Source: a virus. From it: a DNA stretch of 32,039 bases. The notes beneath the pieces are model-generated. The model searched no databases. It worked only from the letters and a program-made list of their open reading frames with translations, and was not told where the DNA came from. Shown piece by piece: positions 4,201-22,634 of the stretch (within the stretch, counting starts at the first letter, position 1; each line of letters begins with the position of its first letter). Position numbers and translations under genes: made by a program. Location of the stretch: IMG/VR virus record IMGVR_UViG_3300046534_000123, positions 1 through 32,039 of that record; one strand, given 5' to 3'.

Positions 4201-7200
4201 AACTGAACCCTGTTTTAGTTATAACATCATCCATTTCTGCTATAGGTATAATAGCAACTCTATAATCTTCGAATAATAGATCTAAATCTATTGATTTGTT
4301 TTTGTTTACATAAGAATCATATAAATACCATAAAACAACTCTAGCAGGAACAACGTGCTCAAACCTATAGTTTGATTCTAGCATTAAATTTCCTTTTTTA
4401 GTGTACATTTTGTCACCAATTTTTTTAGCTTTTTTATCTTTAACATCTTTAGCCGTAGCAAGTCTAGGCTTTTTGATTTTATCGTAAGACATTACAGTTG
4501 ATTTACCCCAAACAGGAGCTGCTAATCTTAAAGCACTATTACTACTAGAGTTTATAGTAGCTAATATTAAAGCTGTTAAATTATCGTTTTCACCTTTTCT
4601 AGGCAAAGATTTCATTAAAGCTCTTACAAACTTTTCAGCTTTTTTAGCATCTGTTTTAGATTCGTTCCATTTAAAGTTATCACCTAACATAGACTGTTGA
4701 ACGTCTGCAGATCTATTAATATTAACTTTTCTAGATGGAGTGCCATCATTAAAAGTTATTATTTGATCAGCTATACTTTTTACATTAGGAAAATTAGGTT
4801 GTATTAAATTTTGTAATATATCTACGTCTTGCTTGCCAAACAAACCTGTTCTATTGCTAGCGTCATTATGTCTTTGTAAGGCTTTGTTTTTAAATTCAAA
4901 AGCACCAAACTTACTTTGGCCTTGACTAAAAGTAGTGCCTGCAAACGCAACTAAATAATCTAAAGCTAAATCATCACTTTTAAGATCACTTTTAAGTTGA
5001 GCTACAAATTTTTTGGATAAAAAATCTCTACCTTCGTTAACAGAGTTTAAGTCTCTTGTCATTTCAGAAATTCTATAAGGCACAGTTACACCATCACTGT
5101 TTACTATAGAAGCTCTTGTAAATTGAACTATAGTTTGATTAACATCACCAGCAAGAACTATGTCTTCTAAGTAGTTAACAAATTCATCGTTTGTTTTAAA
5201 TACTATTCCATCAGCTTTATTAACAGGTATTAAAAGTTTGCTAAATTGTAATGCAATATCTTTATGTTCGTTTTCAAACTCAGTTCCATATATTCCTTTA
5301 TGAATATTTAATATAGTTTTAGATTTGTAATCTTTAGCTTTTAATATTTCATCAAAAAATGTTTGTTTCTTAGATTCCCATAAATCAAACTTACTAGGCT
5401 CTAACAAGGCTAAGCTGTTTTTAACACCTCTTCTTTCTGTTTCTAAAGTTACTTCAGCTTCTAAATTATAAACATTAGCTAATTGGTTTAGCAACTGTTG
5501 TCTTTCAACAAACGTATCTTTTATAGGACTAACCTCTTTATTTATTTCTGCAGCAAAAGTTTGTATACCAATCTCTTGAAGTAATTGTTTTGCTAAAGCT
5601 TCCGTAGGTGCAACTTTAACTTTGTTGTTTATACCATCAATATATTTTCCTTTAAACTGAGATAATGGTATAACATTTTTAATATTAGGTATACGTCTTG
5701 TTTTTTGCATACCAGACGTAGATCCTTGATAAGGCCCATCTCCTGTTCTATAAAAATCAACTTGACCTTCTTTTGTGCCTTTTGTTCTATCTTTCCAGGT
5801 ATCATAATTAACCCAACCCATACCGTTAACATATTTTTGAACAGCTTGAGGAAAAGCTTTTAATAAATAAGTAGTTGTTAAGCCGCCAGAAGAAAGTAAT
5901 GTTTCATAGTTTTCATTTAAAAATTGTTCGTACGCTGGTAAAGTTTTATTCCTACCACCCATTTCATCTATAACTTGAGCATATAAGTTTTTACCGTCAA
6001 CAGTAGTTGTCAATATACCTTTAGTTATAGCTTGAATTAAGTTTGATTTACTTTTAAAAGTTTTGTTATCTGATATTTTAGGCAATTTATATTTAACCTC
6101 TTTTGCTACGCCTTTTAAAATTTTATTATCTAAAGATTTTTTGTCTTTAAATTTAATGTTTTCTTTTATAGAAGGTATAGATTCTTTACTCTCTTTTTTT
6201 GCTCTTGACTTGAGATCAGTTGTTGTATCTGTTTTGCTTTGTACTTGCTCGCTATCAATATCTACTCTAGTTCCTTGTGAAACACTTGGTATTCCAAATT
6301 CGTTTTTAGCCCATGAATTAGCTCGCTGCATACCTGTGTTAGCTATGTAACTACCAAAAGTAGCTTTGCTTGCGTCAAAATTTAAAGCTATAGTACTTAG
6401 TATTTGTTCAGCATCTGTTATCCATTTTTTTCTACCAGTTCTATCATTTAAACTACCAATGAATTTTTCTCTTATATTTTCAGGTATAGGTCTACCAAAT
6501 CTACTCCAAGTTCTACTTGCGACTTTGCCTATTGTTGAATCAAATTGCTCTTGTGTTATAGGTGTAAAATTTTCTACATTAGCGTTTTTATCATTAATAG
6601 TCTGTAAAGTGTTTAAACTTCTAGATGCTTTAGTGCTTAGATTTTCAGTTATAGCCCCCTTGTTTTGGAGCTCTATACCTCTTTTAGTAAACTCACTCAT
6701 TTTCCCTTGTCTAGCAGCAGCATTACTACCTAAAGCATAAGCTAATGCTTTTTGTGGAGTGTTTATGTTATATCTTGATCCACCAAAAACTTTATCTATA
6801 ATATTATCTAAAGTGCCAAAACTTTGTTCGGTAGTTTCTAGTTGTAAATCTCCTTCGTAAGCAAATAAAAGAGACTGAGCTTCTTTTGTCCATTCATCAA
6901 GATATGTATCGTTAATCGTACCGTCTTCGTTAAATTCATTATATAATTGTTTTACAACACTACTAGCTCCGTTACCTATGCTTTTTAAATTTACATTACT
7001 AGATTCTAATAAAGCTTTTCTAAAATTTTCAGCATAGTCTTTACCTCTTGCTGATAAACCATCTGTAGTATTTCCAAAAAACTTATCATCTTGCGCGTGA
7101 TTTATTTCATGTAAAACCACTATTGATGCTCTATAGTCATTTGCTTTAATTCTTTCTTTTATATCGCCAATAGTGTTTACAATAAACTTACCGTCTACAA

Positions 7201-10200
7201 TAAAACCTTGAGCACCAGGATTTTCATTTAACTCTAATGATATATTTACATATTCTTCAACCTCAATTTCTTTATTGTTGTACATTCTTTCTAGTTCAGT
7301 TAAAAGATCTGAACCTTCTGGTTTTTGAATTAAAGTTAAATCATTTAAAGATTTTTCATTAAGAATATTTGCAGCTTGTGATGATTCACTGGCAACTGTT
7401 ATCGCCATAGAAGTACGCGCTCCAATTGCTTTACCTTGAGATATTAGCCATTTTTCTTTATTAGGTATTTGTTTACCTTTACCCATTAAGGTATAAGCTT
7501 TAACTAATGTTTGCCAATTTTCTTGTACTTGTGGATCTTTTCTAGCTTTTTCTGTATTTCTTTTTTGGTTTTCTTCAAATATATAAGATATAACTGCAGC
7601 TATTTTTTGTCTTGGAGTCTTAGCTTTTTTCCATTGATCTGTTGGATTATTTTTTAATCTTTTTTCGGTTGCTGTATACATACCAAAAGTTGGATCGTTG
7701 TTATTAAGCATGTCTTTTACAGACTCGTAATCTTTATCACTGTTCCTAATTTCATTAATTGAACTTTCAATAGAGTTTAGTTCTCTTTCAAAATTAGCTT
7801 TTTCATCACTCGTAAGCTTTCTTCTTTTATATTGGCCTAAAATATAATTAATTTTACTTGGGTCTGTATTAGCACCAACACCAGCTTGTCTTAATAACCC
7901 GTCTTTTATCTGTTTAAAATGTAATAATTTTTTTATATTATCACCACCTAATGCAATTCCATCAACAGCCGCTTCACCATTCGTTTCACTTAAACCTTTG
8001 TACAGTTCAGCTAGTTTTGATAATTGTGACTCTTTATCTTCTTTGGTTATACCTTTAATTAGTAAAGATTTTTCAAGTATTTGTATTTTACTATATTGCT
8101 TGCTAGCTTGTTTCTTCATTTCTTGAGAAATACTAACATTTACAACAGCTGAATAAGCTAAACTAGGCCCATTAGAAAAACCTGCTGTTAACAAAGTAGA
8201 AAACCATACATCATCTAATTGATCTAAATTAAAGTCTCTATCTAATATAGCAAACTCAGACAAACCTTGAGTACCTATTAATATAGTAGATTCTTCAATA
8301 AGTTCACCTCCAACTCTTTTACCATACTCCATACCATACAAACCATACTTACCTAATAAAGTGTTTTTATTAGCTAGCGCTGTTTGGCTTATGTTTGAAT
8401 AACCTCTAACGTCTTTAAGTATTTTAACAGTATTATTAGCAGAACCTATATATCTTGTTACACTACCTTCTACTACACCTGTCATAAAAGAAGCAGCCTG
8501 TATTTGCTCGTCACTCATGTCATTAAAAGCGATGGTTTGTGCTGCATCAGCCATACCGTTAGCATAGGTGCTCTGGTCTATTAAACCTTCTTTGTAAGCT
8601 CCTTTTAACCAAGTTTGCTGCTGTTTAGCTTGATCAACTAAACCTGTTTGTATTGTTAATCTTCTATAAGTGTCCGCACCTGAAGTAACACCAAACGTAG
8701 TTGCAATAGAAGTTTTTACCATTGCATCACTAAGTTTTGCAGCGGTACCTAAACTACCAGTTCCTATAGCCATTAAAATATTAGGAAACTGTTGAGATAA
8801 AGTTCTTAAAGCAAACAAACCTTCATTACCTGATTCATCGCCTAGTTCGCCCATAGTCATGTAAACTTCATTCTTTTGATTCAATCTTACTTGCTCGTCT
8901 ATAGCCCATTGTGAACCAGCTAGCGTTGGTAGTGCAAGAAAAATACCATAAGTAGCATCACCAAAATCTTTAGATATTAGTTCAGCAGTACCATACTCTT
9001 TAGAAAAAGCATCATACATATTTATTTTTTGTGAATCTCTTTTTTTAATATAATCAGTAGCTTCTTTTACCGTGTAAACACTTCCTGTATCTTCGTTAAC
9101 AGTAGTAATCAATAAATCTACTTCAGCTTTAGTTCTTTCTTTTTTTTCACTTTCATCAAGAACTTCTTTAAATTTTAAATTTACTATTTGATTTTTAAAA
9201 TTTTCTATTGTCTGTGTTTTGTCTTCTTGTAAAGTCTGTAATGTGTTTTGAATTTTAAACAACATTGCTTGAGCTTCGTTAAACTTTGCTTGATCTTCAT
9301 TGTTTAAATCTTTAGGAGCTGATATCGAATAAAACGATCCTTGTCCTTCTATATTTTGAAAATTATATTTTACACCTTCAATTTCTTTTATTTTTTCATC
9401 AATTGCTATTATTCCAATTTTAGGAATTTCTTCTAAAAGCTGTGAAGCTAGCTCTAATTTTTGCATTTTATAAGCTAAAGATTTGTCTTGTAAAGCGCCT
9501 TCAGTTTTACTTAACAATCCTCCAGTATCTATAATAGTCTGCTCGTCTTTACCTATTTCTCTAATAGCAGATCCATGCATGGTATCAAATCTTTTATCAA
9601 TCATTGATCTTCTAAGGCCACCATCACCGTCAGGGCCTATTAAACTATTTTTGACTAAAGCTTTTAAATCTACGGCCTTTTCTAGTTTTTCACGTAGTCC
9701 TGGAAACTCTACAATATTTTGTTCAACAAACTCATTAAGCTTTAAATCTAAATTACTTGTGTCTGTGTATTTTTTCATCATCTCAGAAGCAGACTTGATT
9801 CCAAGGTTTTTATCAGAAACTATTAAATTATTTCTTTCAAAATACTTTGTTATGTGTTTTATTTCTTCTTCGCTAAAATTAACATCACCTTTTTCATTTA
9901 CTAATTTTAAATATTCAGGTATATCCTTTGATAAAGTATTATCTTTTATGTATTGTTTAACAACACTAGCGTTATCATCTAGTGATATCTTTTTTTCAAG
10001 TTCAACTTTTTTAGCTTGCTGTAGCTGAACCCAGTTATCATAAGTATTAACTAAACTTTCTTTTATAATACTAGTTTCTTTTGAACTTAAATTGTTTCTA
10101 AGATATGCTTGAACGCCATCTAAACTTAAATCATTTTCTGCTGCTAAAAGATTAAAAGGTAAACCATTTTTAAGCAATTGATAACCTGTAACTTTAGGTG

Positions 10201-11224
10201 TTTCTGTACCTGTTAGCCCTGATGTTTTTTCAATATTATCATAAATAGGTTTTACTTCATAGTCAATAACTTTTAATTCTGTATTTAAAGCTATTAAAGA
10301 TAAATTACCTTCATCAAAACTTTCCACTAGCCCAGCTATTTGAGATGGCTCAATAACGTTTTTAACAAGCTCAACCATGTTAGTGGCTTGTATTACAGAT
10401 AATTGATGATCTTTTAGTTTTTGATAATTTTGCTCAAAAATTCTTTTTTGTTTATCGCTACCTCTAAAAGTAGAATCGTAATTCATAGGTAATTCTAAAA
10501 CATTACCATCGCTTAAAGTAGCTGTTAAAATATTTTTATTCCCTGCACCGCTTCCATTTTTATTATATTGAAAAGTAGCCACACCACCATAACCAGATAC
10601 AGGATTGTTAAAGGCTTTTTCAATATTTTCCGGGTTATCACCTATAAAAGTCTCTGGTATATTAACATTTATGTCGGTATTCCTTAGTGCAGAGTTAGCT
10701 TTTTCAAGTTTAACTCTAGCTGCTTCTCTTTCACGATAACCTTCGTTGTAAATATCATCATTTAATCCTCCCCACCATTTTCTTCTATCCATTAAATCAG
10801 GATATTGTTTTTCTAGTTCATCATACTCAGCTTGTGCTTCATCTACACTTGCATAAGCTGGATCTCTTGTTGGACCCTGGTAAAGAGAATCCAATGAAAA
10901 ATCTTCCGATAATAATTCCGAATCTGATATCTCGAGTGCGTTCGGATCTGTAGGTGCTGCATTTGCACTTGTTTGTGCAACACCTTGTTGAAAATTTTCA
11001 ATATCTTTATTTACTTGCTCTTCAATAAGTCCAGCGTTTATATTATCTGTATCTACTTCTTTTTCAACATTTCCATTATCGTTGATCTCTGGTTTAACAA
11101 ATGAAATATTGTTTAATTCCATGTATTTTTCTACCGTAACGGGTGGTTCTTCTTGTGAAGCTAACAACTCTAAATCAAGTTCTGATAAAGGGTTATCTGG
11201 ACTACTTAAGTTTATATAAGGCAT
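1226..11224 (-). CDS. giant 3332-residue virion/ejection protein with zincin and HAD domains
   Basis: One uninterrupted reading frame of almost 10 kb, about a third of the window, in the position of the T7 gp16 ejection protein. The first about 800 residues are charged and helical. Gly/Ala/Thr-rich hydrophobic segments lie near 815-850, and others near 2865-2895 and 3064-3091 (IYYGFIQNLIFSTLQNALFA). A zinc-protease motif HEINH is at 1372-1376. A region with FDASKATFGSYI sits near 1616-1627, followed by a Lys-rich linker. A full HAD motif set is at 2434-2570. The C-terminus is Lys/Glu coiled-coil. No lysozyme or transglycosylase signature was seen. Probable roles are ejection with the genome and processing of host or virion substrates on entry. 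It could also be a polyvalent protein delivering several enzymes. The ATG at 11224 is the first in the frame and follows the previous stop by 12 bases. Confidence 0.75.
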   Translation of the reverse strand: MPYINLSSPDNPLSELDLELLASQEEPPVTVEKYMELNNISFVKPEINDNGNVEKEVDTDNINAGLIEEQVNKDIENFQQGVAQTSANAAPTDPNALEISDSELLSEDFSLDSLYQGPTRDPAYASVDEAQAEYDELEKQYPDLMDRRKWWGGLNDDIYNEGYREREAARVKLEKANSALRNTDINVNIPETFIGDNPENIEKAFNNPVSGYGGVATFQYNKNGSGAGNKNILTATLSDGNVLELPMNYDSTFRGSDKQKRIFEQNYQKLKDHQLSVIQATNMVELVKNVIEPSQIAGLVESFDEGNLSLIALNTELKVIDYEVKPIYDNIEKTSGLTGTETPKVTGYQLLKNGLPFNLLAAENDLSLDGVQAYLRNNLSSKETSIIKESLVNTYDNWVQLQQAKKVELEKKISLDDNASVVKQYIKDNTLSKDIPEYLKLVNEKGDVNFSEEEIKHITKYFERNNLIVSDKNLGIKSASEMMKKYTDTSNLDLKLNEFVEQNIVEFPGLREKLEKAVDLKALVKNSLIGPDGDGGLRRSMIDKRFDTMHGSAIREIGKDEQTIIDTGGLLSKTEGALQDKSLAYKMQKLELASQLLEEIPKIGIIAIDEKIKEIEGVKYNFQNIEGQGSFYSISAPKDLNNEDQAKFNEAQAMLFKIQNTLQTLQEDKTQTIENFKNQIVNLKFKEVLDESEKKERTKAEVDLLITTVNEDTGSVYTVKEATDYIKKRDSQKINMYDAFSKEYGTAELISKDFGDATYGIFLALPTLAGSQWAIDEQVRLNQKNEVYMTMGELGDESGNEGLFALRTLSQQFPNILMAIGTGSLGTAAKLSDAMVKTSIATTFGVTSGADTYRRLTIQTGLVDQAKQQQTWLKGAYKEGLIDQSTYANGMADAAQTIAFNDMSDEQIQAASFMTGVVEGSVTRYIGSANNTVKILKDVRGYSNISQTALANKNTLLGKYGLYGMEYGKRVGGELIEESTILIGTQGLSEFAILDRDFNLDQLDDVWFSTLLTAGFSNGPSLAYSAVVNVSISQEMKKQASKQYSKIQILEKSLLIKGITKEDKESQLSKLAELYKGLSETNGEAAVDGIALGGDNIKKLLHFKQIKDGLLRQAGVGANTDPSKINYILGQYKRRKLTSDEKANFERELNSIESSINEIRNSDKDYESVKDMLNNNDPTFGMYTATEKRLKNNPTDQWKKAKTPRQKIAAVISYIFEENQKRNTEKARKDPQVQENWQTLVKAYTLMGKGKQIPNKEKWLISQGKAIGARTSMAITVASESSQAANILNEKSLNDLTLIQKPEGSDLLTELERMYNNKEIEVEEYVNISLELNENPGAQGFIVDGKFIVNTIGDIKERIKANDYRASIVVLHEINHAQDDKFFGNTTDGLSARGKDYAENFRKALLESSNVNLKSIGNGASSVVKQLYNEFNEDGTINDTYLDEWTKEAQSLLFAYEGDLQLETTEQSFGTLDNIIDKVFGGSRYNINTPQKALAYALGSNAAARQGKMSEFTKRGIELQNKGAITENLSTKASRSLNTLQTINDKNANVENFTPITQEQFDSTIGKVASRTWSRFGRPIPENIREKFIGSLNDRTGRKKWITDAEQILSTIALNFDASKATFGSYIANTGMQRANSWAKNEFGIPSVSQGTRVDIDSEQVQSKTDTTTDLKSRAKKESKESIPSIKENIKFKDKKSLDNKILKGVAKEVKYKLPKISDNKTFKSKSNLIQAITKGILTTTVDGKNLYAQVIDEMGGRNKTLPAYEQFLNENYETLLSSGGLTTTYLLKAFPQAVQKYVNGMGWVNYDTWKDRTKGTKEGQVDFYRTGDGPYQGSTSGMQKTRRIPNIKNVIPLSQFKGKYIDGINNKVKVAPTEALAKQLLQEIGIQTFAAEINKEVSPIKDTFVERQQLLNQLANVYNLEAEVTLETERRGVKNSLALLEPSKFDLWESKKQTFFDEILKAKDYKSKTILNIHKGIYGTEFENEHKDIALQFSKLLIPVNKADGIVFKTNDEFVNYLEDIVLAGDVNQTIVQFTRASIVNSDGVTVPYRISEMTRDLNSVNEGRDFLSKKFVAQLKSDLKSDDLALDYLVAFAGTTFSQGQSKFGAFEFKNKALQRHNDASNRTGLFGKQDVDILQNLIQPNFPNVKSIADQIITFNDGTPSRKVNINRSADVQQSMLGDNFKWNESKTDAKKAEKFVRALMKSLPRKGENDNLTALILATINSSSNSALRLAAPVWGKSTVMSYDKIKKPRLATAKDVKDKKAKKIGDKMYTKKGNLMLESNYRFEHVVPARVVLWYLYDSYVNKNKSIDLDLLFEDYRVAIIPIAEMDDVITKTGFSSIMLANYKPGDQTWWKRYFNRFTKGKIPYALESYETGDKIGEDFQTYYESNNPVVFKPNSGEQVLKDNNADIAMKNARSAKYSKKIKKIRVFDFDDTLAKSNSKILYTMPDGTKGKLSATEFAKDAAKMERQGVEWNFEEFNKVVEGRKGPLFNVAKTIQDQRGSEDIFVLTARPQEAAVPIQEFLASIGLNIPLANITGLENGAAKAKADWMVNKFAEGYNDFYFTDDATKNVKAVKEVLDVLDVKSKVQIARAKFSQKLDTEFNLMLEQNKGIDANKRYSQVVAQRLGKNKKRWNFFIPPSADDFRGLTMYMFSGEGRKGEADMEWFNKALIKPYTQGVNAIEKARQQVSRDFGGLIKGFPKIKKLLRSKITDQQYTYDEAVRVYLWQKAGFTIPGLSKRDQTMLFKTVIEDANLSAFADGVLAVTKKDKYVEPIGNWSGGTILSDLNSLTTKINRNEYLAEFIENVDVIFNENNLRKIEANYGTRVREALVDSIFRMKSGQNKTSKSNDSAIVNKWNNWVNNSIGAIMFFNRKSALLQLISSVNFVNWSDNNPMMAAAAFANQPQYWKDVVRLFNSDKLKQRRSGLKSDVNEAEIAAAVKGSKNKMQTAISILLKYGFTPTQIADSLAISTGGATFYRNRINTYKKQGFTDVEAEQKAFIDFSEVSDESQQSADPMLISSQQAGVLGRLVLAFQNTPMQYTRLMKKAGLDLINGRGDAKTHISKIIYYGFIQNLIFSTLQNALFAMIPGFNEDDEETEEDIATQLNRKQTRIANGMIDTMLRGSGVAGAAISTVKNAYMKYIEQEEKGFMADHTYTILELANLSPPLGSKLRKVYAGIQTKKIEKDAIAERGFDVTIDGKFNLSPSYQVTGDIVSGFTNIPLDRLVAEVNALTEALDDRNTKWQRLALAIGYRTWDVKAKNEEHDRIKAESKIIRKEQGKIKAKITRKENKRIKDSIYNALPQQEKDAIEFAKIEARINKAFEKLNNM
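3455..3952 (-). other. HAD-superfamily phosphatase domain in the giant protein
   Basis: Residues about 2425-2590 hold the HAD motifs in order. Motif I is VFDFDDTLA, with D2434 as nucleophile and D2436 as acid/base in a DxDxT pattern. Motif II is VLTARP, with T2513. Motif IV is FTDD, with D2569 and D2570 as the metal-binding acids. Lysines in GAAKAKADW before motif IV can serve as motif III. The spacing is right for a small-cap HAD such as phage polynucleotide phosphatases, so a nucleotide or nucleic-acid-end phosphatase is plausible but the substrate is unknown. Confidence 0.78.
7025..7207 (-). other. zincin metallopeptidase motif in the giant protein
   Basis: Residues about 1340-1400 contain FIVDGKFIVNTIG, then ASIVVLHEINHAQDD with H1372, E1373 and H1376 as the HExxH zinc and catalytic residues. 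A strand (FIVDGKFIVN) followed by a hydrophobic helix bearing HExxH is the usual zincin core. A third zinc ligand cannot be fixed by eye. D and E residues in the following 30 positions (DDKFFGN, YAENF) are candidates. Confidence 0.6.
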
Positions 11225-14098: not shown

Positions 14099-15409
14099 TT
14101 AATATGATGATTCGTTGTATTCTAGCGATACTGCAAATAACTCATTAGTACCTGATGTAGCTGTGTTTGTAGCTTTCATTTTAACTGTTGCAAAAAACCC
14201 TTTAACACCTGATATAGATTTACCATAAACAACCTCACCTTGCGTAAACGCTGAAGTATTTATAAGATTAGCAAAATACTTATCTTCTTTTTGTTTAAAT
14301 TGATTTTTAAATAAACTATTTTCTAACGCTGATAATGTGGTTGGCATTTCAAAAACACCTATAGGGTTTGCTGTGTCAGTATCAGTATACTGGTTATTGT
14401 TTGTAGCGGAACTACCATTTGTTTCTAAACTTAACATTTGCCAGTTACTACTTCCTTCGTAATTTATAGTTTTAAAACTTTTAATTAATGAAGGGTTTGT
14501 GTTAAACACTGTTTCCACGGTTGAGTCATATTGAATTTCGTAAAAATAAGCTCTTTTAACGTTCGTAGAATAGTGTTGGTATATATTACCATTGTTTGTT
14601 GAAAAGAAAGCATTTTGTACACTAAAAATTTGATTAGGTACGTAGCTATATCTACTTGTCCAACCTTTCACGCCTTCGTCAAAACTTAATGTTTCTGGTG
14701 TTAGGTTTACAGCAGAAGGAACCAAAGATAATGTATAGCATTTATTATGTATATCCCATCCGCCAACAGCTTTGCCACTACCTAAATCTAAAAATTTATC
14801 TCTAAAGAAATCATACATTCCATAGTTTGATATTTCCGTAAGTCCGTCTTGAGATAATCTCATTACAGAACCTTTGTCTTTGTCTGTAAAGTATTTTCTA
14901 TAACCATATACCGCAAAGCTTTCTGGATTTTGACTAATACCAAACTCTCCAGCGTAAGCAATTATGGCTCCAATAACAACGTTTGAAGTTGTTTGTACTG
15001 GTTGGCCTTCTTGTGTATAAATAGCGTCTTTATCTATAAGAGCTTTATTCACTTTACGCTCTTGAAATATAATTAAATTAGTGTCTTCGGCGTATAGCTT
15101 TTGTATACTACCTTTAGAAGGGTCTACAGTTCTTGTTATGTCTTCTCCAGAAGGAAATTGATTTGTTTGGTTTATGCCGGTTCTAGAATTTATAACCCCA
15201 GAATACATAATAGAACTCCCAAGCGTTTCGCTAGAGTTGTCTTCTGATTTTAAAAAAGCACGAGGAGATAATCCTGTTTGAACATTGTTGTATCCACCTC
15301 TTATTCTAGACTCTTCTACATACCAATCGTAAGCATTAGTGACATTGAATCCAGTTAATTTTTTTAAAACGTATGTGTTATAGTATTTTATAGGAATTAT
15401 TGCAGCCAT
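14099..15409 (-). CDS. second nozzle-type tail protein (beta-propeller-like)
   Basis: A 436-residue protein. It carries motifs of gp10/gp12-like nozzle proteins: LYAEDTNLIIFQERKVNKAL, YGYRKYFTDKDKGSVMRLS with QDGLTEISNYGMYDFFRDKF, and GGWDIHNKCYTLSL, which recalls the GGYDP...EYVLTL blade of related proteins. In many relatives these motifs lie in the same chain as the N-terminal nozzle region. Here they form their own gene, 32 bases downstream of the 1649-residue one, with its own ATG and A/T-rich leader. It probably co-assembles with that protein at the tail tip. The separation could be an old gene split or the ancestral state, and the sequence cannot decide. Confidence 0.62.
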   Translation of the reverse strand: MAAIIPIKYYNTYVLKKLTGFNVTNAYDWYVEESRIRGGYNNVQTGLSPRAFLKSEDNSSETLGSSIMYSGVINSRTGINQTNQFPSGEDITRTVDPSKGSIQKLYAEDTNLIIFQERKVNKALIDKDAIYTQEGQPVQTTSNVVIGAIIAYAGEFGISQNPESFAVYGYRKYFTDKDKGSVMRLSQDGLTEISNYGMYDFFRDKFLDLGSGKAVGGWDIHNKCYTLSLVPSAVNLTPETLSFDEGVKGWTSRYSYVPNQIFSVQNAFFSTNNGNIYQHYSTNVKRAYFYEIQYDSTVETVFNTNPSLIKSFKTINYEGSSNWQMLSLETNGSSATNNNQYTDTDTANPIGVFEMPTTLSALENSLFKNQFKQKEDKYFANLINTSAFTQGEVVYGKSISGVKGFFATVKMKATNTATSGTNELFAVSLEYNESSY

Positions 15410-15441: not shown

Positions 15442-18400
15442 TTAATTTGGTCCAGTTGGTATAGGGGTAGCTGTTGGCGCTATTTGAGAACCTTGTGTTC
15501 CTCCTGACACGTTACTGTAAAAAGGAACTATAGTACCAGACACGTATGGTAGCGCGTATTTTATTGTTCCTGCGGAATTGGTGCTGTACATTAATTCTGC
15601 CTCCCATGTTTGACCACCAGTTGGACTAGAATAAGGCGCTTGAGTTATTTCTAATTTTAAATTCACTAAAGCACACTGTCTAAAGTCATATGAAGGTGTT
15701 GTGGTTGCATTAACCATTCCAGGGCATATTTCATTAGCTATTTGAGTGCTGTTTGCGCTGAAGGCAGACAAAGATTGATTAGTATATGTAAATGTTTCTG
15801 TAGATCCAGAACCTGTTTGAGTACCAATGCTAGCTGTAATACTAGATTCTGTAGTGTTTGTTGGAGTTGAAGGAAAATCACCTTGTCTATTAACGCCTGA
15901 GTTTACGTTTGTAACATCTACATTAAGAGCTTGATCCGTGACACCGTAAGTTTTTAACCTAACCCATAAATAAATTTGTAAATTATTTTGCCAGTTTTGA
16001 AGTTGTCCAGTCCAAGTTGGTAAAAGAAGTTGGCTGTTGCCTATCAAAGAAGTAGTTAAAGAAGAACCAAAACCTGTGCCAGAAGTATAAGCGGTTGTTA
16101 CTACTGACCCAGAGTAACTAGCTTGTGATAATGTAAAGCTAACCGATGTATCTACAGTTAATCCAGACGTGTCACTATTTCTAAACACAAAATCATAAGT
16201 CGTTCCAGAAACTAAAGGATACGTATTATTATTTGTTACTTTCATGTTAAAACCACAAGCCCTATTAATGTTTCCGCTACTACCAGTTAAAGCAGTTAAA
16301 GGTATTTCAAAACGAGCATCTATGTCAACTGAGTTTGTATAAACAGTAGACACACTGTTCAATGTCTCTGTTAAAGAAACTATACTCCAACATTGATTTG
16401 CTCCACCTCGACTAGTTCCTAAAGTGTATTGGCCCCAGTTTCCAAAAGTAAGGTTATCTGTGTTTCTTGCGCTTCCATTTATTGCTCTCGGAGAGGTGTC
16501 TAAAACTCCTGCTCCTTCAATAACACCTTGTCCTCCGAATATCCACGTGGTGTTAGAATCAAATACAGATTGAATCAAAGCCGGTTGATAGATAACAGGA
16601 TTATTATTGACCAACTCTAGTGTTAAAGTCTCGTTTGTTACCGTTGCACCATCTGTCCAGGCTATTGTACATATAAATCTTCCAGCATAGCTACTTCCAA
16701 GTTGTGAACCTGAGTCTGTGCCTACGCCATTTGATCCTGCGTAAAAAGTATCTGTTGTTTTTATAGCTATACTGCCAGTTGCTAAAATATCAAATGAAAA
16801 CCTTTGATTAGCCCCACTTAAAGCGAAATTAGTTGTGTTGGGAGTTGATGCAGGTCCTGTAAAACTAGCGTTTGGTGGATAATTGAATACAGATATTAAA
16901 CTTCCAGTAGCACCAGTATAAGTTGTACCATTAACAGTTGGATAAATATTAGAAGTCACATACGATCCAATAGGATTATTTTCTTCAAAATCAATAACCG
17001 GAGTTGTCATACCGTTTATTTCAGTATTCTCCCCTTGTATAGCGTTGTTTAAGTCTGATATTAAATCAGTAGTTGATGATTCGTAAAATATTTCGAAAGG
17101 AACTACTACTGGAGCAGTTTCATATACAGCTAGTGACATTCCCGCTGGATAAGGAAAATTACTAGTTCCTATTCCTGGAAGTGCAAAACTCTCTTCTTTA
17201 ACACCTAAACTTGATTGAGTTGAAAATTGTGCTATATAAGGTTTTGTTGCTGGATCATATAGAGTAAAAGTATTGTATTCATCTGTTGCAGGAGCGACTG
17301 GTGGAACGCTAAAAGTTATGTCAGGAAACACGTCCTTTACAGTACCTATTAAGTCTGCAGTATCAGGACTTGAAGAAGGGTAAAACTGCCTATTATAAAC
17401 ATAACTAGTAGGTGTAGTTGTAGTATCTGCAATTTGAAGTGTGTTTACAACTCTAGGCCATAATCTTTCGTCACTTGTAAACTGATCTTGCAAAGGACCT
17501 ACTTTTTCTAAGTTTCTAGGTATTTTGTTTATATTGTCAGATATTAATGTTGTAAAAGCGGTTTCACCACGTTCTAAAACATTACCGTCAATAGGATACC
17601 CGTTTACAAAACCAGGTAAATATACGTTATAATAATCTTGTTGCAACTGCTTTATACCTATTCTATAGCTATAAAAACCTCTAGGATTTATATTATAAGT
17701 AGCAAACGTTTTGTCAACAGCTAAAGCTGGTTCAGTTCTTGTTGGACTAGTTTGTCCACTATTATCAAACAAATAAGTTGATGCGATTTCATTTTTAGTA
17801 AAAAACGAAACAGCTCTAACTGGAGTATATAAAGCAGTTACACTTTTTATAGAAGTATAATCACAATATAAGCCTCTTAATTCTTTTCCTACAGCGTAAT
17901 AACTTTGATATGTTGTCGCGAAGTCAGGAAACAAAGGATTACCACCAGCGCTGTACGTACCTGTTTGATATTTGTTATAGTTGTTAGCTGTGTATCTTAA
18001 CGTGAGCTTATAGGCAACTCCAATAACAGGAGCTACAACAAAGGTAACAGTAACGTCATCGTCACCTGTAGCGTCACTTATAGTGTAATCCGTGGTTTTG
18101 ATTAATTTTATCCAACCTGAACCTGTGTTTTTGTATAGTTCATAAGTATTAGTAGCTTCTTGCGTGTCTACGTATACTATGTTTGAGAACAACATTGTTA
18201 GATTGGTGTTTGGGGCAACTACTGTTTCGTTACTATAATCCCAAAAATATGGCAACGTAGGTATTGGCGCTGTTGCTGCGCTTACGGTGTAGTAGTTTCC
18301 TATAGCGTACACTCCTGGATAACCAGGGTTTACGTTGTTTGAATCTGCGGCTTCAGGAATACCAGGCGAATTAAAATTTAATCTTAAATTGTCACCATAC

Positions 18401-20391
18401 CAACCTTGTATGTTATCTGCAAAAGATAATGCTTTGTAGTTTAGAAATATATTAGAACCTGGAACTGCGTTACCTAAAGCGTCCTTTAGATCATCATAAT
18501 TAGATAATATTATGTCAGTTTGTCTTCCGTATTTATCTGCTAAAATTAAACCAACTTGATAGTTTCTGTTTTCTTTTATAGAGTGTTGCGGATATTGTAT
18601 AAATTCTTGTATTGTTTTATCTAAGCTATCTACAAAATAATTCAAACCTATAGGGGCTCCATTACTTTGCACAAAGTTACCATACATTACTCTATTACCA
18701 CTAGTCTCTTGCGCTAAAGCCGTTACTGGTATTTTGTCAAAAACTCTTGTTGTTTGGTTTAAGGTTAAGGTTTTTAAAGGCAATGTAGATTGATAAGAAT
18801 ATTGATAAATATTTGTATTGTTCAAATTACTTACAAAAGCTTCATCAACAACTATACTTTCTATTACAGAAAAAGCTTGCGCATCAGATTCTTTAAACAA
18901 AATATCTATTCCTTTTATCTTATACTCGTTTAAAATATCAATAGTTGGTAGTTCTATGTTTAAGACCGCGTTATTAACAGAGTTTTGCATAAATTCTACA
19001 ACAGTAGTTATAAACGCTTGATTTTCATTGTCATTGACAAATTGTCCTTGTTGTTCGGGTATAAAAACATCTTGACTAAAAGGCGCTGCCACTGAGTATT
19101 CATTGTCATCAAACTTAAATCTATAGCTAAATTTAGCAAACTTATCTTTTAAGTATTCTGGATCTCCATTCCAACCGTTATAATTAGAATTTTTAATACA
19201 TCTAACTGATCTACCTGCTAATTTTGGATTTGAACCTGGAGCTGCTTCTACTGTAGCGTTAGGAGTGTTATAAACCATTTGAACAAAACTATCGTCACCA
19301 GCGTCATTAGTCCAATAGTTAGTTGTTTGTGTTATTTCTTGGAAAAAAGGACTTGTTGCTATATTTTCTCCAGCTGGTAAAGAATTAAAACCTTTAGTGT
19401 TTTGGCCTTGATTTGCAGTAGCTGAAGTTTCCCATAATTCTTCTGATTTTAAAACTACACCAGCCCCGTTGTATGTGTTTCCAACAACGCTACTAGATAC
19501 TGTTGTTAAACTAGCCTCCCATTGTGCTTTTGATAACACTTCGTAACCTACAGGCGCTAAACCTCTAGGATCTAAAACTGCCCACTTATTATACAAAACA
19601 CCGTAAGTAACACCGTTTCCTAAATCATCATTATAATAACACCACGCTCCTGTTTGATTTGTATTTGCTGTAACCCATGCTGAATTTCCTACAGCGTTTT
19701 CTATAACATCTCCGTTTTTATATCTAGTTACTGCTAAGTTTACTGAGCTAATTTCACTAACACCAATTAAAATAGTAGGTAAATCTTCTGCGTCAGTCAT
19801 TGTAGAAGGATGCGTAGCCGCGCTTGTCGTTATAACAGATCTTAAATTTACAAATTCTGGCGCTCTATAAGGAGCCCATTTGCATACAGATATTTGGTCT
19901 TCGTTAGAATAATAATTTAATGTTTTAGTTATATTTATTTTTCTTGGCGCGTTTCTATTATCAGTCCAAAACAAAAGATCTTCAATTAAATTAACTCCAT
20001 ATATAGGGTTTTGTGTAGAGAAATTTAAAAAATTACCTTCAACTAAAACGGTAGAGCTGTTTGAAGCTATGCTATACCTTTCTATAGTCATAATCCATGA
20101 GGTAGTGTCAGCAGGAAAAACATCAGCAATTCCAGTGTAATTTGTTTTAAAAAAATAAATCACAGAATTAACTTCATCAATTATTTTACCAATTATTTCT
20201 AAATTAGCTTGACCACCTCCATTGTATATTTTAGCATTACCCAACACAGATTCTAAAGAACCAACATCACTTCCTTCTGATCTAGATACCGCTACGTTTA
20301 AAGCATCTCTGTACACATTACTTGGAATTAATCTCTCGTCCAAGTCTTTGTTCATTTTAGATTGTATGAAACTGTTTTTAGACTCTGCCAT
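15442..20391 (-). CDS. large nozzle/muzzle-type tail protein with inserted FISUMP domain
   Basis: A 1649-residue, beta-rich protein in the place of T7 gp12 or P22 gp10. The N-terminus has MNKDLDERLIPSNVYRDALN and GVNLIEDLLFWTDNRNAPRK. These read as beta-propeller blades and are a recurring signature of marine and crAss-like nozzle proteins. A FISUMP-like domain is inserted at about 220-402. The nozzle sequence then resumes with LKDKFAKFSYRFKFDDNEYS. Around 730-795 there is an Ig-like module (NIVYVDTQ through VTVTFVVAP). The last about 550 residues are Thr/Ser/Asn/Gly-rich, as in surface-exposed adhesion regions, and end in a Pro/Thr-rich tail. It probably closes the tail tube and contacts the receptor. 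The 436-residue gene after it looks like a further part of the same assembly. Confidence 0.72.
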   Translation of the reverse strand: MAESKNSFIQSKMNKDLDERLIPSNVYRDALNVAVSRSEGSDVGSLESVLGNAKIYNGGGQANLEIIGKIIDEVNSVIYFFKTNYTGIADVFPADTTSWIMTIERYSIASNSSTVLVEGNFLNFSTQNPIYGVNLIEDLLFWTDNRNAPRKINITKTLNYYSNEDQISVCKWAPYRAPEFVNLRSVITTSAATHPSTMTDAEDLPTILIGVSEISSVNLAVTRYKNGDVIENAVGNSAWVTANTNQTGAWCYYNDDLGNGVTYGVLYNKWAVLDPRGLAPVGYEVLSKAQWEASLTTVSSSVVGNTYNGAGVVLKSEELWETSATANQGQNTKGFNSLPAGENIATSPFFQEITQTTNYWTNDAGDDSFVQMVYNTPNATVEAAPGSNPKLAGRSVRCIKNSNYNGWNGDPEYLKDKFAKFSYRFKFDDNEYSVAAPFSQDVFIPEQQGQFVNDNENQAFITTVVEFMQNSVNNAVLNIELPTIDILNEYKIKGIDILFKESDAQAFSVIESIVVDEAFVSNLNNTNIYQYSYQSTLPLKTLTLNQTTRVFDKIPVTALAQETSGNRVMYGNFVQSNGAPIGLNYFVDSLDKTIQEFIQYPQHSIKENRNYQVGLILADKYGRQTDIILSNYDDLKDALGNAVPGSNIFLNYKALSFADNIQGWYGDNLRLNFNSPGIPEAADSNNVNPGYPGVYAIGNYYTVSAATAPIPTLPYFWDYSNETVVAPNTNLTMLFSNIVYVDTQEATNTYELYKNTGSGWIKLIKTTDYTISDATGDDDVTVTFVVAPVIGVAYKLTLRYTANNYNKYQTGTYSAGGNPLFPDFATTYQSYYAVGKELRGLYCDYTSIKSVTALYTPVRAVSFFTKNEIASTYLFDNSGQTSPTRTEPALAVDKTFATYNINPRGFYSYRIGIKQLQQDYYNVYLPGFVNGYPIDGNVLERGETAFTTLISDNINKIPRNLEKVGPLQDQFTSDERLWPRVVNTLQIADTTTTPTSYVYNRQFYPSSSPDTADLIGTVKDVFPDITFSVPPVAPATDEYNTFTLYDPATKPYIAQFSTQSSLGVKEESFALPGIGTSNFPYPAGMSLAVYETAPVVVPFEIFYESSTTDLISDLNNAIQGENTEINGMTTPVIDFEENNPIGSYVTSNIYPTVNGTTYTGATGSLISVFNYPPNASFTGPASTPNTTNFALSGANQRFSFDILATGSIAIKTTDTFYAGSNGVGTDSGSQLGSSYAGRFICTIAWTDGATVTNETLTLELVNNNPVIYQPALIQSVFDSNTTWIFGGQGVIEGAGVLDTSPRAINGSARNTDNLTFGNWGQYTLGTSRGGANQCWSIVSLTETLNSVSTVYTNSVDIDARFEIPLTALTGSSGNINRACGFNMKVTNNNTYPLVSGTTYDFVFRNSDTSGLTVDTSVSFTLSQASYSGSVVTTAYTSGTGFGSSLTTSLIGNSQLLLPTWTGQLQNWQNNLQIYLWVRLKTYGVTDQALNVDVTNVNSGVNRQGDFPSTPTNTTESSITASIGTQTGSGSTETFTYTNQSLSAFSANSTQIANEICPGMVNATTTPSYDFRQCALVNLKLEITQAPYSSPTGGQTWEAELMYSTNSAGTIKYALPYVSGTIVPFYSNVSGGTQGSQIAPTATPIPTGPN
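19186..19734 (-). other. FISUMP-like domain within the nozzle gene
   Basis: Residues about 220-402 of the 1649-residue protein show the FISUMP order of motifs: GVLYNKWAVLDPRGLAPVGY (264-283), a Trp-containing helix (AQWEASL), GFNSLPAGEN (334-343), NYWTNDAGDDSF (358-369) and the ending AGRSVRCIK (392-400). FISUMP (Fibrobacter succinogenes major paralogous domain) occurs mostly in secreted proteins of Bacteroidota and Fibrobacteres. It is thought to adopt a formylglycine-enzyme or C-type-lectin-like fold. A role in binding a host surface sugar or protein is inferred. Confidence 0.72.
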
Positions 20392-20396
20392 TTAAT

Positions 20397-21662
20397 TTAA
20401 TTTTTTATCCATTTAGACTTACCTCTCATTACTTGAACTATTTCATCAAGTTTTATATTAGATAATCTTATTTTAGCGTTTCTTAATTTAGCACTTTTTT
20501 CTTTCTTTAATCTTTGCACAACATATTCCGGCTGATTTATTCTAACTGAAATCAAAGCATGTAATATATAAGCGTATATAGCATCTTCAGCTAACTTAGG
20601 AACTCTACTATCTAGGTCATATGCTAAACCATCAGACACATATTCTAAAACTATCAATCTATCCACTAAATTGCTTGAAAAAGATATTTTACCTTCTCGC
20701 TCGTTTATATTAAACCAACCATTAGTTTGTGCGTATTGAGGCTCCATTCCATACATTTGGCCATAAGCTCCACCAATAAATCCTCCTAATTCGCCCCAAT
20801 TATATGCCCACATATCATTAGTGAAATCATTAGCAAAATTACCATTAATAAAACTATCATTAGCAGTGTGCCATCTTTCTTGTGTAATTGAAGTACCTTC
20901 TAAATCATTACCAAAATTATCTTGAGTAGGTATACCTGCAGAATCTTGCGCTTGAGTATAGTAAGGACTTATAGTTAAATTATTAGCAGGGTATATAGGT
21001 CTTTTAACGCCTAGATCATCAATAAACGACATCTTAACATAGTTAACCATGTCTTGAGGTAGTATTAACGTTAAACTAGCTGGTACAGTTAATTCTGCGG
21101 ATTTAATACTTTTTAATGTATCATAGCTAAACTCTTGCATTGCTCTTTTAGTAAAAAATATTACATCGGTTCTTTTAGCGTCTTGTAAAAGTTTGTGTTG
21201 TCCTACGTATCCTACTAAAAAATTACTTACAACGTCATTTAACGTAACGTATTGATAACTTCCGTAATTGTCTTCTACAGTTTCACCGTAAGCTTTTTCA
21301 GCTTCAGTGTTACCATATTTACCTCCACTTAATATTTTTAACTGTACAACAACATAAGCGTTAGCTACTGGCGCTGCTGTTAAAGTTATAGTTTTACCAT
21401 TTGTAACTTCTAATTGAGTGATCCACTCTGACCAGCTTCCAGCTAATCCTGTAGAGCTAGTGTAAACTTTAAAATTATTTAAACTATAATTAACATCGGT
21501 AGGATTCCAACTTGTTAAACTTCCTAATACAAGATCAGTATCAAAATCGGTTGGAAATGTTTGACCACCACCATTTGCGGCAGCTCTAAATCCTTGAGAA
21601 CCTTGAAAATATTGTTGTGCGTTTTCAGTTACTAATCCGTTGCTTGGTGGTTGTATTGCCAT
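20397..21662 (-). CDS. tail tubular / ring protein, gp11 (T7) or gp4 (P22) type by position
   Basis: A 421-residue protein just before the nozzle gene. The C-terminal two thirds are helical, with LNDVVSNFLVGYVGQHKLLQ, TDVIFFTKRAMQEFSYDTLK and RVPKLAEDAIYAYILHALIS. This is the style of tail tubular A and crAss-like ring proteins. The N-terminal about 115 residues are a separate beta module (PTDFDTDLVLGSLTSW to ITLTAAPVANAYVVVQL), reminiscent of small beta domains used at fibre or collar attachment points. The C-terminus is basic (MRGKSKWIKN). The role would be to join the portal and adaptor to the nozzle. The assignment comes from position and secondary-structure impression, not from a profile match. 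Confidence 0.6.
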   Translation of the reverse strand: MAIQPPSNGLVTENAQQYFQGSQGFRAAANGGGQTFPTDFDTDLVLGSLTSWNPTDVNYSLNNFKVYTSSTGLAGSWSEWITQLEVTNGKTITLTAAPVANAYVVVQLKILSGGKYGNTEAEKAYGETVEDNYGSYQYVTLNDVVSNFLVGYVGQHKLLQDAKRTDVIFFTKRAMQEFSYDTLKSIKSAELTVPASLTLILPQDMVNYVKMSFIDDLGVKRPIYPANNLTISPYYTQAQDSAGIPTQDNFGNDLEGTSITQERWHTANDSFINGNFANDFTNDMWAYNWGELGGFIGGAYGQMYGMEPQYAQTNGWFNINEREGKISFSSNLVDRLIVLEYVSDGLAYDLDSRVPKLAEDAIYAYILHALISVRINQPEYVVQRLKKEKSAKLRNAKIRLSNIKLDEIVQVMRGKSKWIKN

Positions 21663-21668
21663 ATCTTA

Positions 21669-22634
21669 TTAATTTCTTTCGTTTTGATTTTCCATAGCTA
21701 TTTCTTGAGTTGCAGCTTGAACTATTTGAGGATCTTTTATTACAACTCCAGCATATAGTAATATTTTTAATATAGTGCTAGTTTGCTCAGTTATATCTAA
21801 TTCAAAGTTAACCGAACTAGCTGGGTCATAAACGTAGTAACCAGTTGCGGAAGAAAAATTCCAAGCTACATCTGCTGGTTTTCTAATATAAGTAACTTGT
21901 ACTTGGTTGTTAATAGTTTGAGGATATATAGTTATTCTGTTTTGTTCATAAAAACAAACAGGAAAATGCTCAGTAGGTTTGCTTATAGGTGACATATTAA
22001 GCATAGCTAGTTCGTTTCTTTGAATTTGCTCAACTTCTCTGTCATCTCTATATAATATTGTTCCTAATTTGTAAAAATCATTAGGGTATAAATTTATGTT
22101 TAACGTACTACCAGCTCCAATAGGCGTTGCGGGTACCGTAGAGGTATCAGCACTAAATATACCACCTGTAATATCCCAATTAGCGTTAGCATAAGGAATA
22201 GCGGCTGTGCCAGTGGGTGTTTCTATAGTAACAACCGTAGTAGCGTTTTGTACTTGAGCTTGTGTTATTGTAGTTAAAGGATAACCTGTCGCTGTTGTCG
22301 ACGTTAAAAATGTTTGAAATCCGCTTGCTACATTTGAAGATGTTGGTATAGCAAAAAAAGCTGGAGTAGTTCCAACTGCGGCATTGTAAGTACAATCTCC
22401 TATTTTTTTAAAAGCATCTAGCTTTTCTTGTACGTTTTTATAGCGATTTCCATATTCGCTATCATTTTGTGGCACGCGCATTTGTTGATTAATAGTTTGA
22501 AAATAATCATCAATAGTCTCTAGTTGGACTTGTGTTGCTATTTTATTAAACTCGTCAGGAGTAAGATAACCTCTTTGCTCTTTGTTTATTATTAATAAGA
22601 CGGTTTTGTAAACCTGATCTACGTTTATTGCCAT
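21669..22634 (-). CDS. head-tail adaptor / ring protein candidate
   Basis: A 321-residue protein at the head-tail junction position. The N-terminal about 75 residues are helical (DQVYKTVLLIINKEQRGYLT, DEFNKIATQVQLETIDDYFQ), and the C-terminal 100 residues mix beta strands and a helix (RITIYPQTINNQVQVTYIRK, then ILKILLYAGVVIKDPQIVQA). Between them, roughly residues 85-180, lies a Thr/Ala/Pro/Val-rich segment that looks like an inserted surface domain. Adaptor proteins of podoviruses attach below the portal ring. The assignment rests mainly on order: capsid, unknown, this gene, tubular protein, nozzle. Confidence 0.55.
   Translation of the reverse strand: MAINVDQVYKTVLLIINKEQRGYLTPDEFNKIATQVQLETIDDYFQTINQQMRVPQNDSEYGNRYKNVQEKLDAFKKIGDCTYNAAVGTTPAFFAIPTSSNVASGFQTFLTSTTATGYPLTTITQAQVQNATTVVTIETPTGTAAIPYANANWDITGGIFSADTSTVPATPIGAGSTLNINLYPNDFYKLGTILYRDDREVEQIQRNELAMLNMSPISKPTEHFPVCFYEQNRITIYPQTINNQVQVTYIRKPADVAWNFSSATGYYVYDPASSVNFELDITEQTSTILKILLYAGVVIKDPQIVQAATQEIAMENQNERN

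What the first reader, a model, noticed from the sequence alone, without database searches (positions are those of the whole stretch)
19186..19734. FISUMP domain inserted into a phage tail nozzle protein
Residues 220-402 of the 1649-residue protein carry the ordered FISUMP motifs (DPRGLAPVGY, GFNSLPAGEN, YWTNDAGDD, GRSVRCIK). They lie between two segments that read as continuous nozzle sequence. FISUMP belongs mainly to secreted proteins of Bacteroidota and Fibrobacteres and has a C-type-lectin-like fold. A host-type domain on the tail tip could act as a receptor-binding module and points to the host phylum.
Basis: partly seen in the sequence, partly recalled or inferred. Interest (0 to 1): 0.62.

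Follow-up and report, generated by a model that had tools for sequence, protein, structure and literature searches.

The report
FISUMP domain inside phage tail-tip protein
One uncultured lineage of crAss-related phages has built a protein module otherwise typical of surface proteins of Bacteroidota bacteria into the protein that forms the tip of the tail, at a spot where sister phages carry unrelated modules or nothing, which suggests an exchangeable site for touching the host cell.

Summary
Residues 218-400 of the 1649-aa protein match Pfam Fib_succ_major (E 5e-19) and NCBIfam TIGR02145 (1e-14), both above cut-off. The protein is the N-terminal part of a crassvirus muzzle (T7 nozzle-like tail tip; PF25731, 41.8 bits); the muzzle is split here and the next gene carries PF25729. 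The domain lies inside the Ig-like domain IG1. It is an insertion: crAss001, phi38:1, Elemovirus and ctfjg026 have only 11-14 residues there. On a tree of the flanks, FISUMP presence needs one change (28 carriers, one clade, support 100%), and muzzle FISUMPs form one clade apart from bacterial ones: gained once, inherited, no loss seen. Sister clades fill the slot with at least five other insert types (about 97-200 aa) with no detectable similarity to FISUMP or each other. FISUMP is also common elsewhere in viral contigs, mostly at protein C-termini, including a tail-module protein of other crAss-like phages. A receptor- or surface-binding role is the best explanation but is inferred. No reverse transcriptase was found in 31 related records, so a diversity-generating retroelement is unlikely. 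The lectin fold was not confirmed. The host phylum follows from relatives, not from the domain.

The parts
15442..20391 (-). Muzzle (tail nozzle) gene 1, 1649 aa, carrying the FISUMP insert
   Evidence: phrog_14478 E 1.5e-42; PF25731 crAss_MUZ 41.8 bits on the first 720 aa; hhalign to crAss001 gp44 residues 8-178, E 3.8e-8
19192..19740 (-). FISUMP (Fib_succ_major) domain, residues 218-400
   Evidence: PF09603 E 5.3e-19, TIGR02145 E 1.4e-14, position
19183..19782 (-). Likely full inserted segment, about residues 204-403
   Evidence: bounded by motifs shared with muzzles that lack FISUMP; limits good to about 10 residues
19822..19890 (-). Segment before the insert (first IG1 strand), residues about 168-190
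   Evidence: alignment to crAss001 gp44 IEVSKV; IG1 = gp44 163-292 per PMC10172136
18667..19161 (-). Rest of IG1 after the insert, residues about 411-575
   Evidence: KFSYRFKFDDNEYS aligns with gp44 FTYYNKYGKETN and phi38:1 FLRFSYRYKYADGEVS; exact end inferred
17692..18294 (-). Second clade-specific insert in the muzzle, residues about 700-900, no Pfam match
   Evidence: blastp hits in 26 FISUMP-clade loci and in none of the others; alignment gap at 695/902 in the others
14099..15409 (-). Muzzle gene 2, 436 aa: C-terminal part of the muzzle
   Evidence: PF25729 crAss_MUZ_C E 2.5e-9; phrog_14478 positions 910-1242; conserved two-gene arrangement
20397..22634 (-). Two genes next to the muzzle (421 and 321 aa), probable ring proteins
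   Evidence: phrog_13977 and phrog_14543, virion structural proteins; weak SU10_adaptor match for the 321-aa protein; gene order as in crAss001 and phi38:1

Best explanation
A FISUMP domain was inserted once into the loop between the first two strands of Ig-like domain 1 of the muzzle in the ancestor of an uncultured lineage of flavophage-related, crAss-like podoviruses, and has been inherited vertically since. It sits as a side domain on each muzzle subunit at the tail tip, so if the muzzle is a hexamer as in crAss001 there are six copies. Most likely it contacts a component of the Bacteroidota cell surface (polysaccharide or surface protein) during adsorption or triggering of the muzzle. Shown by computation: family, position, insertion, single gain, vertical inheritance, faster sequence change than the flanks. 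Inferred: outward exposure, hexamer copy number, binding function, ligand.
For: Family: and model match to a viral FISUMP protein (TM 0.60). Profile comparison of the muzzle slot with bacterial FISUMP: probability 100%, E 4.9e-53. Muzzle identity. Insertion: slot of 11-14 aa in crAss001, phi38:1, Elemovirus, ctfjg026. Single gain: one change on the flank tree, clade support 100%; muzzle FISUMPs one clade, 100%. Presence: 69 of 80 loci found with a query from the C-terminal flank only, the 11 without being the most distant. Vertical: rank correlation 0.78 between FISUMP and C-flank distances, Mantel p 0.001. Faster change: mean p-distance 0.525 in FISUMP against 0.358 and 0.303 in the flanks, 0.635 in its C-terminal half. 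Same slot holds other unrelated inserts in sister clades. FISUMP is separately placed at the C-terminus of a tail-module protein in other crAss-like phages L285 and L321, beside ring and muzzle genes.
Against: No binding or structural data. The C-terminal half is variable in bacterial FISUMPs too, so fast change need not mean receptor selection. dN/dS stays below 1 and many dS values are saturated. FISUMP is kept throughout the clade rather than swapped, as a structural part would also be. The orientation of the loop in the hexamer was not examined.
Confidence: 0.58

Rival explanations
1. The domain is a structural spacer or brace of the muzzle (subunit packing, stability, shape of the tail tip), without binding a host ligand.
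For: Fixed in all sampled clade members; co-occurs with a second clade-specific insert in the same protein; core residues under strong conservation.
Against: FISUMP evolves faster than the muzzle flanks; unrelated inserts or nothing serve in the same place in relatives; in other phages FISUMP is mostly a free C-terminal module.
Confidence: 0.25
2. The domain is an adhesin for something other than the infection receptor, for example extracellular polysaccharide, mucus or particles, keeping the virion near its hosts.
For: Analogy with BACON tandem repeats in crAss-like phages, for which host binding has been suggested (PMC6949934); many viral FISUMPs are C-terminal, some behind Thr/Ser-rich linkers.
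Against: No ligand known; location on the tail tip rather than on the head or fibres points to the late contact step.
Confidence: 0.14
3. The domain is the target of a diversity-generating retroelement, as reported for some Fib_succ_major proteins in gut metagenomes and Bacteroides phages.
For: Known precedent (PMC4159848, PMC8143477); variable C-terminal half.
Against: No reverse transcriptase (PF00078) in 31 related viral records, several of 50-66 kb; the domain is internal, and close relatives differ by ordinary divergence.
Confidence: 0.02
4. Assembly chimera joining bacterial and phage DNA.
For: None.
Against: Same junctions in dozens of independent contigs, with phage-specific FISUMP clade.
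Confidence: 0.01

Closest known systems
Muzzle protein gp44 of Bacteroides phage crAss001 (PDB 7QOK, 7QOL; Bayfield et al. 2023)
   Same: N-terminal region homologous (PF25731 41.8 bits, hhalign E 3.8e-8), ring genes adjacent, IG1 split by the insertion point
   Different: gp44 is one chain with a 13-aa slot; here the muzzle is two genes, with FISUMP in IG1 and another clade-specific insert further on. The paper mentions length variation by insertions in the crass and IG2 regions, not in IG1
Muzzle genes of Cellulophaga phage phi38:1 (Pervagoviridae), Elemovirus, and uncultured ctfjg026
   Same: Closest annotated relatives by muzzle and terminase
   Different: No FISUMP anywhere in their genomes; slot of 11-14 aa; phi38:1 and Elemovirus muzzles are single genes
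Bacterial FISUMP / Fib_succ_major proteins (PF09603, TIGR02145)
   Same: Domain homologous over its whole length; 37 of 99 sampled genomes of the phylum of a Bacteroidales MAG carry it
   Different: Muzzle copies form their own clade and lose bacterial-conserved residues such as W at 214 and H at 284
BACON domain repeats in crAss-like phage tail proteins
   Same: Host-type domain recruited to tail proteins, host binding suggested (PMC6949934)
   Different: Different domain and different protein; tandem repeats rather than one internal insertion
Fib_succ_major / DUF1566 proteins diversified by DGRs in Bacteroides phages and gut metagenomes
   Same: Same Pfam domain in phage or metagenome variable proteins
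   Different: No reverse transcriptase found here; domain internal in the muzzle

Membership tests
FISUMP domain (PF09603 / TIGR02145) | Profile match above curated cut-off | tested here: met
   69.7 vs 33.9 bits; 55.2 vs 41.65 bits
FISUMP domain (PF09603 / TIGR02145) | Full-length coverage with ordered core motifs (NLxV.YRNGD, YGxLYN, DPRGLAPxG, SVRC) | tested here: met
   profile 12-187 of 187; about 40 positions conserved in both phage and bacterial sets
FISUMP domain (PF09603 / TIGR02145) | C-type-lectin-like fold | tested here: inconclusive
   AF2 model pLDDT 63, pTM 0.64; no PDB match; matches only another predicted FISUMP protein, TM 0.60
Crassvirus muzzle | crAss_MUZ profile (PF25731) on the N-terminal region | tested here: met
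   41.8 bits against 27, residues 8-182; not listed when the whole 1649-aa protein was scanned
Crassvirus muzzle | crAss_MUZ_C (PF25729) C-terminal domain | tested here: met
   present in the separate next gene, 37.9 bits against 27
Crassvirus muzzle | Ring-joining domain, seven-bladed propeller, IG1, IG2, crass fold in a hexamer | not testable with these tools
   low-confidence model of the first 720 aa did not retrieve gp44
Phage receptor-binding protein | Binding to a host receptor | not testable with these tools
DGR target protein | Reverse transcriptase and template/variable repeat pair | tested here: not met
   PF00078 absent in 31 related records; the window itself and repeat pairs were not searched; records are partly fragments

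The most novel reading that the evidence does not exclude
The first loop of IG1 in the muzzle is a general insertion slot of crAss-like tail tips in which unrelated, surface-exposed domains (FISUMP being the only recognised one) are exchanged over evolution and set which cell surface the tail tip engages.
Probability: 0.33. Interest if true: 0.68.

Novelty: new variant of a known kind. Interest (0 to 1): 0.5.

Why it matters
How crAss-like and flavophage tails contact their hosts is poorly known, and the muzzle was thought to touch the cell through the crass domain (PMC10172136). A slot in another domain of the same protein that carries a bacterial-type FISUMP in one lineage and unrelated inserts in others gives a concrete candidate for host contact, and a small domain that can be purified and tested. 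It also shows that FISUMP, known mainly from bacterial proteins of unknown function, is a frequent phage virion-type module, which is a clue to what FISUMP does.

Tried and rejected
DGR: no reverse transcriptase in 31 related records. Chimera: rejected by dozens of contigs with the same junctions. FISUMP replaces IG1 as a whole: rejected, since IG1 segments lie on both sides. The other slot inserts are decayed FISUMPs: no support, profile comparisons 1% probability or less (small sets, low power). Structural confirmation: FISUMP model and 720-aa model gave no PDB match. PDB sequence searches with FISUMP profiles found nothing. Genome-wide scan for bacterial donor: one weak relative, 31% identity, so no donor named. 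Literature: no paper with the word FISUMP in the library, none describing it in a muzzle; the library is open-access only.

Full report
Setting. The window is a 32 kb viral record, low GC, with genes on the minus strand in the order terminase, portal, capsid, ring-like proteins, muzzle. Terminase matches 87 phage records at full coverage, all but one from phages of Flavobacterium, Cellulophaga, Tenacibaculum or Maribacter; the best is the uncultured ctfjg026 at 62.5%. Muzzle matches give the same picture. Hosts in Bacteroidota (Flavobacteriia) are therefore likely from the backbone alone.

The observation. Residues 218-400 of the 1649-aa protein are a FISUMP domain by two independent curated profiles. 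The muzzle slot of the clade compared with an alignment of bacterial FISUMPs gives 100% probability and E 4.9e-53 (that alignment also holds one phage sequence). A low-confidence model of the domain (pLDDT 63, pTM 0.64) retrieves a viral protein annotated as Fibrobacter succinogenes major paralogous domain at TM 0.60. No solved structure was found, so the lectin-like fold rests on published profile similarity of Fib_succ_major with DUF1566 (PMC4159848).

The host protein. PHROG 14478, Pfam crAss_MUZ on the first 720 residues and hhalign to crAss001 gp44 residues 8-178 identify the N-terminal part of the muzzle. In gp44, IG1 spans residues 163-292 between propeller blades 2 and 3 (PMC10172136). 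The hhalign match stops at gp44 178, and the sequence after the insert (KFSYRFKFDDNEYS) aligns with gp44 FTYYNKYGKETN and phi38:1 FLRFSYRYKYADGEVS. The domain is thus nested in IG1 after its first strand. The second half of that placement rests on a multiple alignment at low identity.

Presence and absence. The first scan fetched 80 relatives by the N-terminal 364 residues; Pfam finds FISUMP in 30 of 40 near records and in 0 of 44 others, including the complete crAss001, phi38:1, ctfjg026 and the Elemovirus record. L028 and L030 end before the slot and are uninformative. Slot lengths are 218-301 aa in carriers, 11-14 in crAss001, phi38:1, Elemovirus and ctfjg026, 21-29 in several relatives, 107-330 in others. 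On a tree from the flanks only (455 columns), FISUMP needs one change and its carriers form a clade with support 100%. A second scan using only the C-terminal flank gave 69 carriers of 80; the other 11 are the most distant and hold an unrelated insert of about 97 aa. A scan by FISUMP profile gave 80 loci, all in the muzzle slot, 78 with both flanks and 2 cut by the contig end. Many of these loci come from the same contigs, so the counts are not independent events.

Origin and evolution. Muzzle FISUMPs form one clade (100%) against 35 bacterial domains and against other phage FISUMPs. Distances of FISUMP and flank correlate (0.78, p 0.001), so it is inherited with the muzzle rather than re-acquired. 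FISUMP changes faster than the flanks, the C-terminal half most, but bacterial FISUMPs are also more variable there, so this is weak evidence for receptor selection. Members L002-L004 and L035 carry further inserts of about 60-70 aa inside the domain.

A slot, not only an insert. Sister clades have other segments at the same point. Profile comparisons among five such insert groups, FISUMP and bacterial FISUMP showed no relation except FISUMP to FISUMP, and none has a convincing Pfam match. Some groups have three members only, so absence of similarity is not proof. Motifs on both sides (TM(T/S)DA and GDPxYLxDKF) are shared between carriers and at least one non-carrier group.

FISUMP in other phages. 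An alignment of bacterial FISUMPs found at least 422 matching stretches in viral contigs; among 89 ORFs examined, 72 carry it at the C-terminus, 12 internally and 5 run off the contig; 22 have a Thr/Ser-rich linker before it. Some of these contigs may be bacterial: several ORFs look like lipoproteins. In L285 and L321, crAss-like by ring and muzzle profiles, FISUMP is the C-terminal part (one or two copies) of a protein encoded just before the ring and muzzle genes. This second use in the tail region of related phages supports a surface-contact role.

Function. A module that bacteria and phages attach to surface or virion proteins, placed on the tail tip, in a slot that tolerates unrelated domains, most simply serves contact with the cell surface. 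None of the binding steps is shown. The alternative, a brace of the tail tip, remains open. A diversity-generating retroelement is disfavoured.

Verdict. It is a new variant of a known kind: a phage tail protein with an acquired adhesin-type domain.

Noticed in passing
window 14099-15409 and 15442-20391; L002-L051, L005, L065, L084: The muzzle is encoded by two consecutive genes in most of this lineage, split at about crAss001 gp44 residue 905-938, so the propeller would be completed by a second chain. It is a single gene in L052, L058, L059, L074, L078-L080, phi38:1, Elemovirus and crAss001, and L005 and L065 appear to be in three pieces.
   Followed up: partly
window 17692-18294 (residues about 700-900 of the muzzle): A second insert of about 200 aa in the IG2/crass region is found only in FISUMP carriers (26 loci, none of the others). 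No Pfam match. The two inserts may work together.
   Followed up: partly
L002-L004 slot, L035 slot: Nested inserts of about 60-70 aa inside the FISUMP domain, one a Gly-rich GxGYT...GSGY segment.
   Followed up: no
L285 2344-3555; L321 1744-3573: crAss-like phages with one or two FISUMP domains at the C-terminus of a protein next to ring and muzzle genes; its N-terminal part has a paralogue without FISUMP in L285.
   Followed up: partly
L335 2914-5979; L301 3903-6551: Phage-classed contigs with ORFs made of four or five tandem FISUMP domains.
   Followed up: no
L087 (Bacteroidales MAG contig): One ORF of 1084 aa carries several tandem FISUMP domains; the same genome has 8 matches.
   Followed up: no
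window 1226-11224: A 3332-aa ORF without Pfam match above cut-off, in the place of the very large structural proteins of phi38:1 and Elemovirus.
   Followed up: no
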